Positions 19,222 to 63,295 of a stretch of 64,000 nucleotides of DNA are shown piece after piece; the stretch's first letter is position 1, and every line of letters begins with the position of its first letter. Location: positions 7,006,001 to 7,070,000 of the forward strand of contig OY783216.1 of NCBI GenBank assembly GCA_963678705.1, given 5' to 3'. The DNA comes from Panorpa germanica (lineage: Eukaryota > Arthropoda > Insecta > Mecoptera > Panorpidae). Below the pieces are notes generated by a model, which worked only from the letters and a program-made list of their open reading frames with translations, had not been told where the DNA came from and did not search any database. Position numbers and translations under genes: made by a program.

Positions 19222-19557
19222 TTTATTATTTATTAATTTATTTATTTACCTTTACCAGCTTACATTTTTTATACATATTTAACATTTTATAATTCTATTT
19301 TACAAATTTCAAAATATTTAAACAATTCAATAATTAATTTTGAATCACTTAACAAACATTTAGTATTAACAGGAAAAGTTTTAATCACATCTAATATTTC
19401 ATTATTGACTTTTGATCTTTCTGAACTATAATTTATGCATTCAAATATAATATGATCCAAAGTTCCTTCTTCACCACATTGACATCTATCGTCGGATTTA
19501 ATATTAATTTTGTACAGATTGATTCTGATTATAGTTGATATAATTTTGCGGGTATAA
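19222..19557 (-). pseudogene. LINE-C non-LTR retrotransposon 3' fragment
   Basis: The minus strand matches the C-terminal tail preserved at 43992-44384: the DDRCQCGEEGTLDHIIFEC zinc-finger-like block is at about 19435-19505, followed by the 3' tail and an A-rich end (T-rich on plus at 19222-19245). A deletion of roughly 27-30 bases relative to the 44-kb copy removes the segment between 'gtacag' and 'gattctgattatag'. Homology to the 44-kb copy stops just after 'gatataattttg', essentially where the 63-kb copy also stops. Confidence 0.8.
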
Positions 19558-36204: not shown

Positions 36205-36730
36205 TGAGCTGAAAAGTCCCGGGCCTAACAAAGAAAACACAGTTTTTTTGGTTCAAAATTAGCTTTATTCATCAACGTAATCTCCATCAAGAGCAACGCA
36301 ATCATTCCAGCGCCGCTCTAACATTTCAATACAACTTTTGTAGAACGATTTATCTTTTGCCTCAAAATAGGCCTCAGTTTCAGCGATAACCTCTTAATTC
36401 GTGCGAAATTTCTTACCGGCGAGCTTTTTTTTCAGGCCTGCGAACAAGCAGTAGTCGCTGGGAGCCAAATCTGGCGAATACGGTGGATGTGGGAGCAATT
36501 CGAAGTTCAATTCATGTTGTTTTGCCATTGTTTTGATTGACTTGTGACACGGTGCGTTGTCTTGATGAAACAAAATTTTTTTCTTTGCCATATGCGGTCG
36601 TTTCTTTGCAATTTCGGCCTTCAAACGCTCCAATAACGCTATATAATATTCACTGTTAATGGTATTTCCTTTCTCAAGATAGTCGATGAATATTACACCA
36701 CGCACATCCCAAAATACCGAGGCCGAGCTA
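36205..36730 (-). pseudogene. mariner transposase C-terminal half with one terminal repeat
   Basis: The minus-strand translation starts SASVFWDVRGVIFIDYLEKG and contains 'HQDNAPCHKS' and 'LLPHPPYSPDLAPSDY', the last two Asp of the mariner DD34D catalytic triad. It continues 'LFAGLKKKLAGKKF' and, after an in-frame stop near 36394, 'EVIAETEAYFEAKDKSFY' to the natural stop at 36267-36265. The apparent start (36705) is a GTG, not an ATG. Downstream lies a terminal-repeat-like 'gaaaagtcccgggcc' (about 36211-36226). The N-terminal DNA-binding region and the first catalytic Asp are missing. This family differs from the mariner at 22.5 kb. Confidence 0.9.
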
Positions 36731-38599
36731 TATAATTCTGTATAAAAAGTCTAATTTGTATCAGAAAATGTAAATTTGTAGCAAGGATAATGTTACTTAT
36801 GTTAAATAAACCTTAAAAAATTGTAATTCTGTTTACCGGGAAAAAGATATCGGTAAAGATGGATCATCAGATACTGTACCAAGTTCTTCAAAGTTATCCA
36901 AGACTGCTCTACTAAGTTTTAATTCAGATTGTCAATGCGTTTACTTGTTACTTCGGTTTTCTTCAACAAAGTTGTTCAACTTGTGTCAATTAGTTTAATT
37001 TAATTAACAACGTATTGATAATTGTTAGAAGTTTCAGCTAAATATTAAGTTAATGAATGTTTTGAACGTCGTAGAGAACCTACTTGTACTTCCGTTCGCT
37101 GCAAGATTTAGTTTCTATAAAGATTCCGTTATTGCCGTCATGGCATTTTACGAGCTGACTAATTAGATGCTGCTCTAATTAACAATTATTATAATTACAT
37201 CTTAAGTAACATTTTATTAAGTTACTGAAACTATTGTCTTATCTCTTATAATGATTATTACACACACACACACATATAGAATGTACATATTATTTTCTAC
37301 TATGATTATTTATCAATGATACTTCCCGAGTCGAAATTTTGACCCTATTGCCGACCTAAAAGAACCTGGGTTCCTGCAGGTAGAAAAGAGGATCTTTTAC
37401 ATATGATTTTAGCTCCTCCTTTGGGCCTACATGTGGCAGTTATCGGACAAATTACGATGTTTAGGGTCAAATGAGGATGACATTCAAAACGTCATATAAA
37501 CTTAGCCACGCTCTAGTCACGCCTTTACTCGGTGTTGCCGTGTCGACGATGATATATTTATATATATATCCTATTTTACAAGTGTGTGTCTGTGTGGATG
37601 TTAACATAAGTGAAACATAAAATACATAAACAGTTACAGGTGGACATAGAATACAATGTACTGAGTAAATGTGTTAAACGAATTAACTTTATATTTAGTT
37701 TTCTGTCCCCTTGTCGTGCAATAGGTATATATTCATATGAGAGAGACAGAGATGGAGAAAAACTCTTAATCCCAGCTTTAATATGGGAAACTAGTTGAAG
37801 GTGGAAATATGTGCTCGATGAAATATTGAACAGGACTTAAAGGATTATAAGAGAACTTTAAAGAATATATCCTTGTAACAAATTATTGTTACTAGAAGAT
37901 ATGACATCTTCCTCAACCCTTGGCTACCACCCATATGATTTGATAATGACTGTACCAGATTCAGTGCTTCGAGTATTCAATCCCCTTACCTCTCACCACC
38001 ATGACAGTGAGGGAATGAGGTTAATAGTAGATACCGAAATAGGGGCTAATACCAGTGTCCCTCCCTTAGCCCATCAGTACCCCCCCCCCCCCGCCATCCC
38101 TAACACTGCACCATACCATCTAACGCTAGATTTATGGTCGAGCTAACACATGACGATCGACCTGAACATTTATTTCAGCCCTTATTCTGTTGTACATCGA
38201 AACCAGGATATTCAGGACATTCAGGACATCAGGACCAGGATATGGAGTAGCATCAAGTTATTGAAATCGCGTGAAGAAGTTTTCGGGGAAATAAATCGAC
38301 CGAACGATATTCCCAAAGGTCGATTTGCATAAAACCTGACGAATGGGTTCATTATATTAAGGGAAGATAATGCAGAGATGTAATGTAACGTTTGTAAGTT
38401 ATTAAATACTGTATCTATATACTTTTAATCATCTGAAAAAGTAATTTGTTACTCTTTAAGGTGTATCATTTAAATACACCAGGAAGTTTGCTTATTTGAC
38501 AGTTCATTGTTTTTTCGCCAACGAAGATGAGAAATCAAGTAAAATTTTAAAAGGAGTCGTAGCCCAGTTATGTAATGCTATCAAAGTGTTTCAATGAAA
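36731..38599. other. Intergenic stretch with small simple repeats
   Basis: It contains an AT-1 3' end at about 36770-36835 ('cttatgttaaataaacctta'), a short (AC)n at about 37260-37273, a run of 13 C's at 38080-38092 and a tandem of 'ggacatcaggac'-like units near 38208-38236. An 86-codon frame (37886-38146) reads through the C-run as Pro and shows no domain. Confidence 0.45.
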
Positions 38600-43904: not shown

Positions 43905-44462
43905 TTTTCTTTTTTATATTTGTTTACTTATTTGCCTTGACTTTCTTTCGTCGTAACCACCATCAAACATTTTTTATACATCTTTTATAATTTATATTTC
44001 AATTTTACAAATTTCTAAATATTTAAATAATTCACTAATTAATTTTGAATCACTTAACAAAAATTTAGTACTAACAGAAAAAATTTTAATCACATCTAAT
44101 ATTTCACTATTCAATTTTGATCTTTCTAAACTATAATTTATGCATTCAAATATAATATGATCCAAAGTTCCTTCTTCACCACATTGACATCTATCGTCGG
44201 ATTTAATATTAATTTTGTACAGGTGAGCTGGAGTTTTGCAATGATTACTTTTGATTCTCATTATAGTTGATATAATTTTGTGGGACTCATTTCTAAACCA
44301 TCTCTTCTTACTTAAATTTTGATGCAACATATAATAATCTCTTTTTTTTAACTGACTTTTGTTAATGAAATCTGTGTTTCTCAAATTGAAGTTAAATTTT
44401 TTGATTATAGTAAAAAAAAATTTATTGATTCCTTTGCCAATTTATCCTATTCGATCTTATTT
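43905..44462 (-). pseudogene. LINE-C non-LTR retrotransposon, C-terminal fragment
   Basis: The minus strand from about 44462 reads DKLAKES (the end of an RNase H domain) preceded by a stop, then a frame open from about 44450 to the stop near 43992. It includes LRNTDFINKSQ, KKRWFRNESHKIISTIMRI and the zinc-finger-like DRCQCGEEGTLDHIIFEC, then a 45-residue tail. The 130-codon ATG-initiated frame (43992-44384) is the best preserved LINE-C tail here. Compared with the 57.9-kb copy it lacks about 14 residues after DKLAKESIN. The 3' end has 'ttgccttgactttctttcgt' (plus-strand orientation), shared with 61.06 kb. Confidence 0.85.
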
Positions 44463-61040: not shown

Positions 61041-61105
61041 TTTTTTTTTATTCATTTATTTGCCTTGACTTTTATTCGTCATATAAATATATATATATAT
61101 ATATA
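61041..61105 (-). repeat. LINE-C 3' end, left part (split by Tigger element)
   Basis: A T-run followed by 'ttcatttatttgccttgact' and 'ttattcgtcata' matches the LINE-C end at about 43905-43955. It runs into a TA repeat in which the Tigger element is inserted. The remainder of this LINE-C copy resumes at 62948. Confidence 0.75.
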
Positions 61106-61128
61106 CAGTAGGGCCTCGGTAATCCGGA
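61106..61128 (+). repeat. Left terminal inverted repeat of the Tigger element
   Basis: 23 bases, the first 13 identical to the inverted right end. The transposase reading frame is open from 61112, inside this repeat, with no ATG until 61217. Confidence 0.95.
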
Positions 61129-61216
61129 CTCTCGCTTATTCGGTGATCGCTGTAATCCGGCCGGCCGGGCAATTCGACATTCATTAACAATAAAAGACAA
61201 ATTACGGATTATAGAA

Positions 61217-62734
61217 ATGTTAGATAAGGGTGACAGCTACCCTGTCATTGCTCGGAAGTTTGGTATAGGCAGGTCAACTGTAGGCGACATAAAGAAAAAC
61301 AAAGACAAACTCTTGAAGTTTGTTAGCCTAACAGAACGTGGTCCCGGTGTACGAAAAACACTGAAGAAATCGGAAAATCCTGTTTTAGAAGATGCTTTGT
61401 TTACGTGGTTTTTGCAACAAAGGCGATTGCATGTTCCTGTAAGTGGTGATATGATTTGTGAGAAAGCTCGAATTTTTCATCGCCAGATTACAAACTCCAA
61501 TATCGGATTTAATGCAAGCCGGGGATGGTTAGACAAATTTAAAAAACGCCACGGAATAAGACGTTTAAAAATGGCCGGTGAAAAACTGTCAAATGATGAA
61601 GCCGCTATCGGACCATTCCAACTAGAGTTACAGAAAGTTATTAGAGAAAAAAAATTAACAGCGGAACAGGTTTACAATGCTGACGAATCTGGTTTGTACT
61701 GGCGATTATTGCCAGATCATACATTAGTCTCTGGCAATGAGCAGTCGGCTTCCGGAAGGAAAATGATGAAGATGAGAGTGACATTCATGCCTTGTGCAAA
61801 TGCGGCTGGAACTCATAAACTTCAATTGCTTGTTGTCGGAAAATCAAAAAACCCACGGGCATTTAAATCAACACGTCTTCCTGTTTGTTATCGTGCACAA
61901 AAAAATGCTTGGGTTACGAAAGACTTGTTTCTTGAGTGGTTTAAAACGGAATTCGTTCCCGCGGTCCGCCGCCATCTTTTGTCTGTTAATTTGCCTCCTC
62001 AGGCACTGTTATTGTTGGATAATTGTCCTGGGCATCCATCAGCAGATGAACTTGTCTCTGAAGACGGCCACATTTTTGCAATGTTCCTGCCACCTAACAC
62101 CACGGCGTGTATACAACCAATGGATCAGAACGTTATACAAAATGTGAAGTTAAATTACCGCAAATCACTTTTGGTTAACTGTCTTGCATTATGTTCTGAA
62201 AACCTCATGGACTCATTAAAATCGATAACTTTAAAGGACACAGTTTTTCTTTTGGCTAATTGCTGGGCCAATGTTAAGACATCGCTAATTAACAAATCAT
62301 GGAAGAATTTGCACCCTGAATTTCTCACTGATAATGACGAACTAGAAGATGATGTTCCTTTAGCCCAGCTTTTTAACAGGTTGAGGGGACCCAATGATCC
62401 TCAAATAAGTGAGGCAGAAGCTCAAGAATGGGCTGCTGGTGGTGCCGAAAGCGAGTTACAAAGATATGAAGTGTTAACTGATGAGGAGATTGTGCGAGCG
62501 GCTATGTGTGAGGACGATGAGGAAGATGAGGACAATAGCGTTGAAATTCTAAAAATCACAAAAGTTGGTAATTCAGAGGCAGTAGGAGCTTTAAACACTG
62601 CTTTAAAATGGGCTGATGATAACGAATTTGATAGCCACGAAGTTATGTTTCTCCGTCGACTTAGAGACCGGGCTTTCGAAATGAAGTGCGAAAATTATAA
62701 ACAGAAGAGTATTACAGACTTTTTCAAGAATTAA
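61217..62734 (+). CDS. Tigger/pogo-like transposase (DDE superfamily, CENP-B-type DNA binding)
   Basis: A 505-residue cut-and-paste transposase. Residues 1-30 are the recognition part of a psq/CENP-B-N helix-turn-helix (PVIARKFGIGRSTV). Residues about 55-118 form the CENPB-type second DNA-binding domain (WLDKFKKRHGI at 104). The catalytic triad is D156 (NADESG), D268 (LLLLDNCPGHP) and D303 (LPPNTTACIQPMDQ), with 34 residues between the last two. An acidic stretch lies at 432-439. The C-terminus has Q496-x-x-I-x-x-F-F503, a PCNA-interaction box of the kind described for pogo transposase. No stop or frameshift breaks it. Codons upstream of the ATG continue the homologous helix (SLTIKDKLRIIE), so the given start is only the first available Met and the original start appears lost. 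The 117- and 79-codon frames inside are shadows. Confidence 0.95.
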   Translation: MLDKGDSYPVIARKFGIGRSTVGDIKKNKDKLLKFVSLTERGPGVRKTLKKSENPVLEDALFTWFLQQRRLHVPVSGDMICEKARIFHRQITNSNIGFNASRGWLDKFKKRHGIRRLKMAGEKLSNDEAAIGPFQLELQKVIREKKLTAEQVYNADESGLYWRLLPDHTLVSGNEQSASGRKMMKMRVTFMPCANAAGTHKLQLLVVGKSKNPRAFKSTRLPVCYRAQKNAWVTKDLFLEWFKTEFVPAVRRHLLSVNLPPQALLLLDNCPGHPSADELVSEDGHIFAMFLPPNTTACIQPMDQNVIQNVKLNYRKSLLVNCLALCSENLMDSLKSITLKDTVFLLANCWANVKTSLINKSWKNLHPEFLTDNDELEDDVPLAQLFNRLRGPNDPQISEAEAQEWAAGGAESELQRYEVLTDEEIVRAAMCEDDEEDEDNSVEILKITKVGNSEAVGALNTALKWADDNEFDSHEVMFLRRLRDRAFEMKCENYKQKSITDFFKN

Positions 62735-62924
62735 CTAATGTTTTATTTTAACTTACTGATTTCCTTACATAGTTGTAATTTTGAACATGTACATTTTGTC
62801 TATATGCTATAATTTAAAAATTGATTAAAGAAACTAAGGTTAAACATGTGTTTTATTAACATTTAATATGGCATACTATAATCCGGACGCCTCGATAATC
62901 CGAAAAGGGTCTTGTTTTTGCCTC

Positions 62925-62944
62925 TCCGAATTAACGAGGCCCTA

Positions 62945-62947
<3 letters not shown>
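62925..62947 (-). repeat. Right terminal inverted repeat of the Tigger element
   Basis: Inverse of the left terminus. Just inside, 'gcctcgataatccgaa' (62889-62904) repeats the left-terminus motif GCCTCGGTAATCCGGA in direct orientation, so the right end can fold back on itself. Confidence 0.92.

Positions 62948-62988
<41 letters not shown>
62948..62988. repeat. (TA)n microsatellite at the Tigger insertion site
   Basis: About 41 bases of TA repeat continue the shorter TA run at 61087-61105 on the other side of the element. Confidence 0.95.
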
Positions 62989-62991
<3 letters not shown>

Positions 62992-63295
62992 ACATTTTAT
63001 ATTGTTCTATTTTAGAAATTTTTAAATATTTAAATAATTCACTAATTAATTTTGAATCATTTAACAAAAACTTAGTATAAACAGGAAAAGTTTTAATCAC
63101 ATCTATTATTTCACTATTGGATTTTGATCTTTCTAAACTATAATTTATGCATTCCAATATAATATGATCCAAAATTCCTTCTTTTCCACATTTACATCTA
63201 TCGTCGGATTTAATATTAATTTTGTACAGGTAAGCGGGGGTTTTACAATGATTACTTTTTATTCTGATTATAGTTGATATAGTTTTGCGAATATA
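62989..63295 (-). pseudogene. LINE-C non-LTR retrotransposon 3' fragment, right part
   Basis: The minus strand reads the LINE-C tail: a 'CKCGKEGILDHIILEC'-like zinc-finger block at about 63145-63195, then INYSLERSKSNSEII and LLNDSKLISELFKYL to a stop near 63000. Homology to the 44-kb copy stops at about 63290, just upstream of the same position as in the 19-kb copy. Together with 61041-61105 it forms one copy, split by the Tigger element. The 76-codon frame 62942-63172 reads on into TA repeat as Tyr-Ile. Confidence 0.85.

What the first reader, a model, noticed from the sequence alone, without database searches (positions are those of the whole stretch)
61106..62947. Complete Tigger/pogo element with an uninterrupted transposase and catalytic triad
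Seen: both termini, TA flanks, a 505-codon frame with D156, D268 and D303 and no disruption, in a window where every other transposon is broken. Known: Tigger/pogo transposases are the source of CENP-B and several domesticated genes. Inference: a recently arrived or still mobile copy, or one under selection.
Basis: partly seen in the sequence, partly recalled or inferred. Interest (0 to 1): 0.75.

Follow-up and report, generated by a model that had tools for sequence, protein, structure and literature searches.

The report
Young scorpionfly jumping gene, start deleted
This is a recent copy of an ordinary Tigger-type DNA transposon in the German scorpionfly; it looks complete, but comparison with its sister copies shows it has lost the start of its transposase gene, so it is most likely a passenger that can be moved but cannot move itself.

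Summary
The anatomy is real: a 1842-bp element with 23-bp terminal inverted repeats, TA flanks, a 505-codon frame and a DD34D triad at D156, D268 and D303. The reading "complete, uninterrupted transposase" is not: in this genome (Panorpa germanica) sister copies show that this copy lost a net 139 bp (218 bp against the one complete copy found) just inside its left end, including the 5' leader, the true ATG and the first codons. The 505-codon frame opens at an internal Met, residue 21 of a 525-aa protein, inside helix 1 of the CENP-B-type domain. The deletion junction occurs once in the genome. There are 79 exact left-end matches; all 39 copies read at both ends have TA flanks. Only this copy and one on contig C5 span the frame; the other 37 of the 39 are internally deleted, 0.1-0.5% divergent within four size classes: a recent burst, presumably moved in trans. 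The two long copies differ by 6 nonsynonymous and 2 synonymous changes, so selection is not indicated. A degraded relative in Pieris brassicae (409 of 442 aligned residues, matching into the TIR) points to horizontal transfer. An ordinary member of a known kind: young family, defective copy, not a domesticated gene.

The parts
61106..62947 (+). Tigger/pogo-type DNA transposon copy, 1842 bp, 5'-deleted
61106..61128 (+). left terminal inverted repeat, 23 bp
   Evidence: 21 of 23 positions match the right TIR
62925..62947 (-). right terminal inverted repeat, 23 bp; A at 62929 is private to this copy (G in L002 and 37 of 37 other copies aligned)
61165..61181 (+). deletion junction: 17 bp where L003-type copies have 156 bp and the complete copy L002 has 235 bp (leader, ATG, first codons)
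   Evidence: junction found once in the genome at up to 2 mismatches
61217..62734 (+). 505-codon frame (with stop) from an internal Met; equals residues 21-525 of the full protein
61223..61321 (+). remnant of the CENP-B_N DNA-binding domain (profile positions 20-52 of 53; 29.2 bits against 50.7 in the full protein)
61376..61564 (+). HTH_Tnp_Tc5 DNA-binding domain
   Evidence: E 3.1e-18
61769..62302 (+). DDE_1 endonuclease domain
   Evidence: E 7.2e-42
61682..61684 (+). codon of D156, first catalytic aspartate
62018..62020 (+). codon of D268, second catalytic aspartate
62123..62125 (+). codon of D303, third catalytic aspartate (DD34D)
61086..61105 (.). left (TA)n flank
62948..62988 (.). right (TA)n flank
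62990..63290 (-). 3' part of a high-copy non-LTR retrotransposon into which the element inserted
   Evidence: 90-94% identical matches over about 300 bp in 39 other places scored of 1415 candidates; flank-joined comparison with the copy ending near 43991

Best explanation
The window holds one young, 5'-deleted, probably non-autonomous copy of a Tigger/pogo-superfamily DNA transposon of the German scorpionfly. Shown: ends, TA targets, sister copies, the deletion of leader, start codon and first codons in this copy only, and the absence of a selection signal. Inferred: the complete 525-aa protein binds the TIRs with its two helix-turn-helix domains, cuts the element out with its D-D-D site and inserts it at a TA; a complete source copy (L002 or one like it, perhaps no longer in this assembly) supplied the transposase in trans; the window copy inserted in the (TA)-rich 3' part of a non-LTR element and lost its 5' leader by faulty repair at or after insertion. 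It can be moved if a transposase is present, but would make at best a protein lacking its N-terminal arm and most of helix 1 of the first DNA-binding domain.
For: Leader, ATG and MAPPRKHS-type start present in 13 of 13 other copies aligned at the left end and missing here. Complete 525-aa frame in L002, C5:23396156-23398215. Same start in two outside relatives: P0001 (94.1%, 494 of 525, unnamed source) begins MAPPRKHS; the Pieris protein carries LANIMAPRKHS. No in-frame ATG upstream. Helix 1 modelled at residues 12-23 of the full protein (block pLDDT about 87-91) while the window frame starts at residue 21. CENP-B_N falls from 50.7 to 29.2 bits. Junction unique in the genome. 79 exact left-end matches and 152 TIR matches at up to 1 mismatch against 0 for the reversed control. 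39 of 39 two-ended copies flanked by TA. Within-class divergence 0.45% (1165 bp, n=18), 0.12% (1726, n=3), 0.26% (1552, n=2), 0.38% (901, n=4). 6 N and 2 S changes between the long copies.
Against: The truncated CENP-B_N match is still above Pfam's cut-off (29.2 against 21.2 bits), so some binding is possible from the internal Met. The source in trans is inferred: L002 itself carries 4 private nonsynonymous changes, and 33 of the 39 aligned copies share a 3-bp insertion absent from both long copies (alignment, counted), so most derivatives stem from another lineage than either. No expression or activity data. A misassembly at the junction cannot be excluded without reads.
Confidence: 0.85

Rival explanations
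1. A still autonomous copy: translation from the internal Met (or a near-cognate codon upstream) gives an active transposase.
For: All three catalytic aspartates, the whole DDE_1 and HTH_Tnp_Tc5 domains are intact; the frame is open upstream to the TIR; CENP-B_N remnant scores above cut-off.
Against: Leader (presumed promoter region), ATG, basic arm and most of helix 1 are gone; no other copy carries this junction, so this variant has left no detectable descendants; private P376L, E467D and a TIR change.
Confidence: 0.08
2. A copy under selection or being domesticated by the host, like CENP-B, JRKL or the TIGD genes.
For: Long open frame; published precedents for pogo-derived host genes (PMC7386202, passages).
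Against: Both TIRs and TA flanks present, one of many young copies; dN/dS 0.81 on 8 changes; start codon lost. The small number of changes leaves weak selection untested.
Confidence: 0.02
3. The missing leader is an assembly or sequencing artefact and the real locus is complete.
For: The missing stretch is GC-rich and reads were not available to me.
Against: The junction holds bases not found at the corresponding place in the other copies, and 13 of 13 other copies aligned have that stretch assembled.
Confidence: 0.05
4. For the Pieris relative: vertical descent from the common ancestor of Mecoptera and Lepidoptera rather than horizontal transfer.
Against: 409 of 442 aligned residues identical (BLASTP over the whole gives 83%) and 23 of 25 residues identical when the TIR and leader, which are non-coding, are read through; the record sits on an 18.5-Mb contig, so a stray contaminant is unlikely.
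Confidence: 0.1

Closest known systems
Tigger family of the pogo superfamily (PMC7386202 and PMC9219625, passages seen)
   Same: CENP-B_N + HTH_Tnp_Tc5 + DDE_1, DD34D within the reported DD29-36D, TA targets, TIR of 23 bp within the reported 8-33 bp, transposase of 525 aa in the complete copy
   Different: This copy lacks the start; position in the family tree not tested. PMC7325037 (passages) argues that Tigger is polyphyletic.
Insect proteins annotated 'jerky protein homolog-like', e.g. Sipha flava P0004 and Macrosiphum euphorbiae P0006
   Same: Same domains and length; 61-62% identity
   Different: Separate families by any usual element threshold; names come from annotation pipelines
Pieris brassicae protein P0003
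   Same: 92.5% of aligned residues, TIR and leader matched: the same element family
   Different: Degraded: lacks stretches and has E in place of the second catalytic D
Non-autonomous deletion derivatives (MITE-like; comparison recalled, not from a call)
   Same: TIR-bearing internally deleted copies amplified in discrete size classes
   Different: The window copy keeps almost the whole coding region and is a singleton variant

Membership tests
pogo superfamily, Tigger family | CENP-B_N, HTH_Tnp_Tc5 and DDE_1 domains in order | tested here: met
   for L002 in full; in the window frame CENP-B_N is truncated but above cut-off
pogo superfamily, Tigger family | DDxD triad with 29-36 residues between the last two | tested here: met
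   34 residues; range from PMC7386202
pogo superfamily, Tigger family | TA target site duplication and short TIRs | tested here: met
   39 of 39 two-ended copies TA/TA; TIR 21 of 23
pogo superfamily, Tigger family | Placement within the Tigger clade in a transposase tree | not tested
   no reference set of pogo families was at hand
Complete autonomous element | Intact leader, start codon and full transposase frame | tested here: not met
Complete autonomous element | Catalytic activity | not testable with these tools
   needs an excision or transposition assay
Domesticated transposase gene | No TIRs or TSD, fixed single locus | tested here: not met
   TIRs present and many sister copies; fixation among individuals not testable here
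Domesticated transposase gene | Purifying selection | tested here: inconclusive
   6 N and 2 S, ratio 0.81, P = 0.53 for fewer N than neutral; only 8 changes

The most novel reading that the evidence does not exclude
The family has evolved its own brake: the most amplified class read here (1165 bp, 18 of 39 two-ended copies, plus one of 1173 bp) keeps the authentic ATG and a 96-aa frame with the first helix-turn-helix and no catalytic domain in 19 of 19 copies, and the window copy encodes a DNA-binding and catalytic protein without its N-terminal arm; such fragments could compete for the TIRs and repress transposition, as KP does for the P element (recalled).
Probability: 0.05. Interest if true: 0.5.

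Novelty: new member of a known kind. Interest (0 to 1): 0.22.

Why it matters
It shows why an unbroken frame and both ends are not enough to call a transposon complete: only sister copies reveal that the start is missing. The family itself is a useful young case, with one complete copy, a ladder of internally deleted derivatives and a probable transfer between a scorpionfly and a butterfly, in an order (Mecoptera) for which my searches found no Tigger report (three Tigger/pogo papers searched, two of them for the words Panorpa, Pieris and Mecoptera with no hit).

Tried and rejected
Rejected: 'complete element'; 'copy under selection' as unsupported. A trans-acting repressor from the 1165-bp class was considered: 24 segregating changes among 18 copies, of which 2 N and 3 S fall in the 96-aa frame and 7 N and 0 S in the downstream 173-aa frame; this gives no support for selection on the second frame and too few changes for the first. 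A scan of viral contigs for a possible carrier gave 6 pattern matches, none encoding a relative. Rfam found nothing in the window. Foldseek with the L002 model (mean pLDDT 73.5, pTM 0.51) gave weak whole-chain matches to Mos1 (TM by query 0.22-0.28) and domain matches to CENP-B 1hlv and Sleeping Beauty 5cr4: consistent, not decisive. Left-flank search gave only short matches, so the flank does not show a clean empty site in a second genome place; the flank-joined comparison with the non-LTR copy near 43991 is approximate because (TA)n replaces some bases, and the one with the copy near 19279 does not extend through the left flank. A literature search on gap repair and internal deletions returned no paper.

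Full report
What was checked. The element at 61106-62947 is real. Its ends are inverted repeats matching at 21 of 23 positions, TA lies on both sides, and the + strand holds a 505-codon ATG frame at 61217-62734 with CENP-B_N (partial), HTH_Tnp_Tc5 and DDE_1 domains and D156, D268, D303, spacing 34. By sequence the nearest solved structures are the DNA-binding part of CENP-B (E 1.4e-10) and fission-yeast Abp1 (E 3.4e-4).

Host. The window is G000:C13:7006001-7070000 of a 464,208,970-base genome. Its mitochondrial COX1 is 100% identical over 98% of the query to Mecoptera records, including a Cerapanorpa one; Panorpa records listed are at 99% or 100%. Size and 21 chromosomes with an X agree with the published Panorpa germanica assembly of 464.2 Mb (PMC11464959: abstract, outline and one passage seen). 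The species name is therefore inferred from assembly size plus COX1, since no P. germanica COX1 row was among the names I saw.

Sister copies. A DNA search of the genome gave 113 matches from 40 scored of 82 candidates. The left-end pattern gave 152 matches at up to one mismatch and none for the reversed control; of the 100 places listed, 79 are exact left-end matches, two of which face each other 489 bp apart and may be one copy. I read 39 copies at both ends: 39 of 39 have TA on both sides. Their lengths are 2060 (1), 1842 (1, the window copy), 1824 (1), 1726 (3), 1557 (1), 1552 (2), 1173 (1), 1165 (18), 1150, 1086, 1042, 902 (1 each), 901 (4), 893, 838 and 489 (1 each). Two further fetched copies, L007 and L019, lack one end in the scan and were not counted there. 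Pieces of 100 bases or more are 97-100% identical to the window copy. Mean divergence within classes is 0.12-0.45%. A protein search gave 137 matches from 85 scored of 234 candidates; only the window copy and L002 span residues 1-505, three 1726-bp copies reach residue 441 with two stops, and the rest of this family are shorter pieces.

The decisive point. L002 (C5:23396156-23398215, - strand) is 2060 bp long and encodes 525 aa beginning MAPPRKHSTLTIKDK. In the left-end alignment of the window copy with 13 other copies, all 13 have a leader and an ATG with MAPPRKHS or, in L007, MASLRKYS; the window copy has 17 bp in place of 156 bp (L003 type) or 235 bp (L002). The window's first Met is residue 21 of the full protein. 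In an AlphaFold model of L002 the first helix runs from 12 to 23, so the window product would lack the basic arm and 9 of 12 residues of helix 1. CENP-B_N falls from 50.7 to 29.2 bits but stays above the 21.2-bit cut-off, which leaves some room for residual binding. No in-frame ATG lies upstream, and a TAG in the TIR closes the frame. The junction is found once in the genome at up to two mismatches.

Selection. The long copies differ at 8 codons, 6 nonsynonymous and 2 synonymous: dN/dS 0.81, P 0.53 for a deficit of nonsynonymous changes. Polarised by the other copies, P376L, E467D and one TIR base are private to the window copy; S210P, T355I, V456I, A458G and one synonymous change are private to L002, and a second synonymous change is shared by L002 with one other copy. 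Thirty-three of the 39 aligned copies share a 3-bp insertion missing in the other six, both long copies among them, so neither long copy is the direct source of most derivatives; an unseen or lost source is likely.

Insertion site. The right flank is the 3' part of a high-copy non-LTR element (1415 candidates, 40 scored, one being the window itself). Joining the flanks and aligning them with another copy of it in the window (near 43991) places the insertion within that element, with (TA)n tracts in place of some bases. The match is approximate.

Relatives elsewhere. The protein search of L002 returned 675 proteins at E 0.001 or better from 7992 scored candidates, 120 listed. P0001 (unnamed source) is 94.1% identical (494 of 525). 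A Pieris brassicae protein on an 18.5-Mb contig has 409 of 442 aligned residues identical (83% by BLASTP over 94% of the query), is degraded, and its upstream part reads through the element's TIR and leader with 23 of 25 residues identical before a gap (the whole alignment is 58.5% over 82 columns). Aphid proteins follow at 61-62%. Similarity in non-coding sequence between two insect orders is best explained by horizontal transfer, which is common for Tigger elements (PMC9219625, passages). Pieris DNA and host-gene distances were not available, so this is inference.

Verdict. A young Tigger/pogo family that was mobile recently; this copy is 5'-deleted and most likely mobile only in trans. It is neither complete nor shown to be under selection.

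Noticed in passing
own genome C12:16077304, C9:1469360, C16:5827774, C21:25558387, C1:4270807, C2:4146014, C2:6016719, C10:6962186, C21:15789847, C5:3331976 (L070-L079): A second Tigger-type family, 36-37% identical to the window frame: 10 loci read, 98.8-99.6% identical to L070 over about 2.2 kb, 6 of 10 with an uninterrupted 546-aa ATG frame. A better candidate for a currently active Tigger in this genome.
   Followed up: partly
own genome C1:18176012-18177523 (L066): A further Tigger-type frame (532 aa from ATG, 37% identical to the window frame) that did not match L070; a possible domesticated gene or another family. TIRs and copy number not examined.
   Followed up: no
1165-bp copies, e.g. 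L023-L027: The commonest class read keeps a 96-aa ATG frame with the first DNA-binding domain and a second frame of 173 or 199 aa in 18 of 19 copies.
   Followed up: partly
own genome, 19 places outside C249: COX1-like fragments on chromosomal contigs, several with stops beyond TGA: probable nuclear copies of mitochondrial DNA.
   Followed up: no
window 36394-36750 (-): Fragment of a mariner-type transposase (Transposase_1, E 6.2e-15).
   Followed up: no
L043 3035-3523, C2:25650709-25651197, C3:16805402-16805890: A 489-bp class of the same family with both ends; on C21 one lies 173 bp from a 1552-bp copy.
   Followed up: no
P0117: A relative annotated in a 'Candidatus Arsenophonus' metagenome bin on a 3.2-kb contig, probably insect host contamination.
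   Followed up: no
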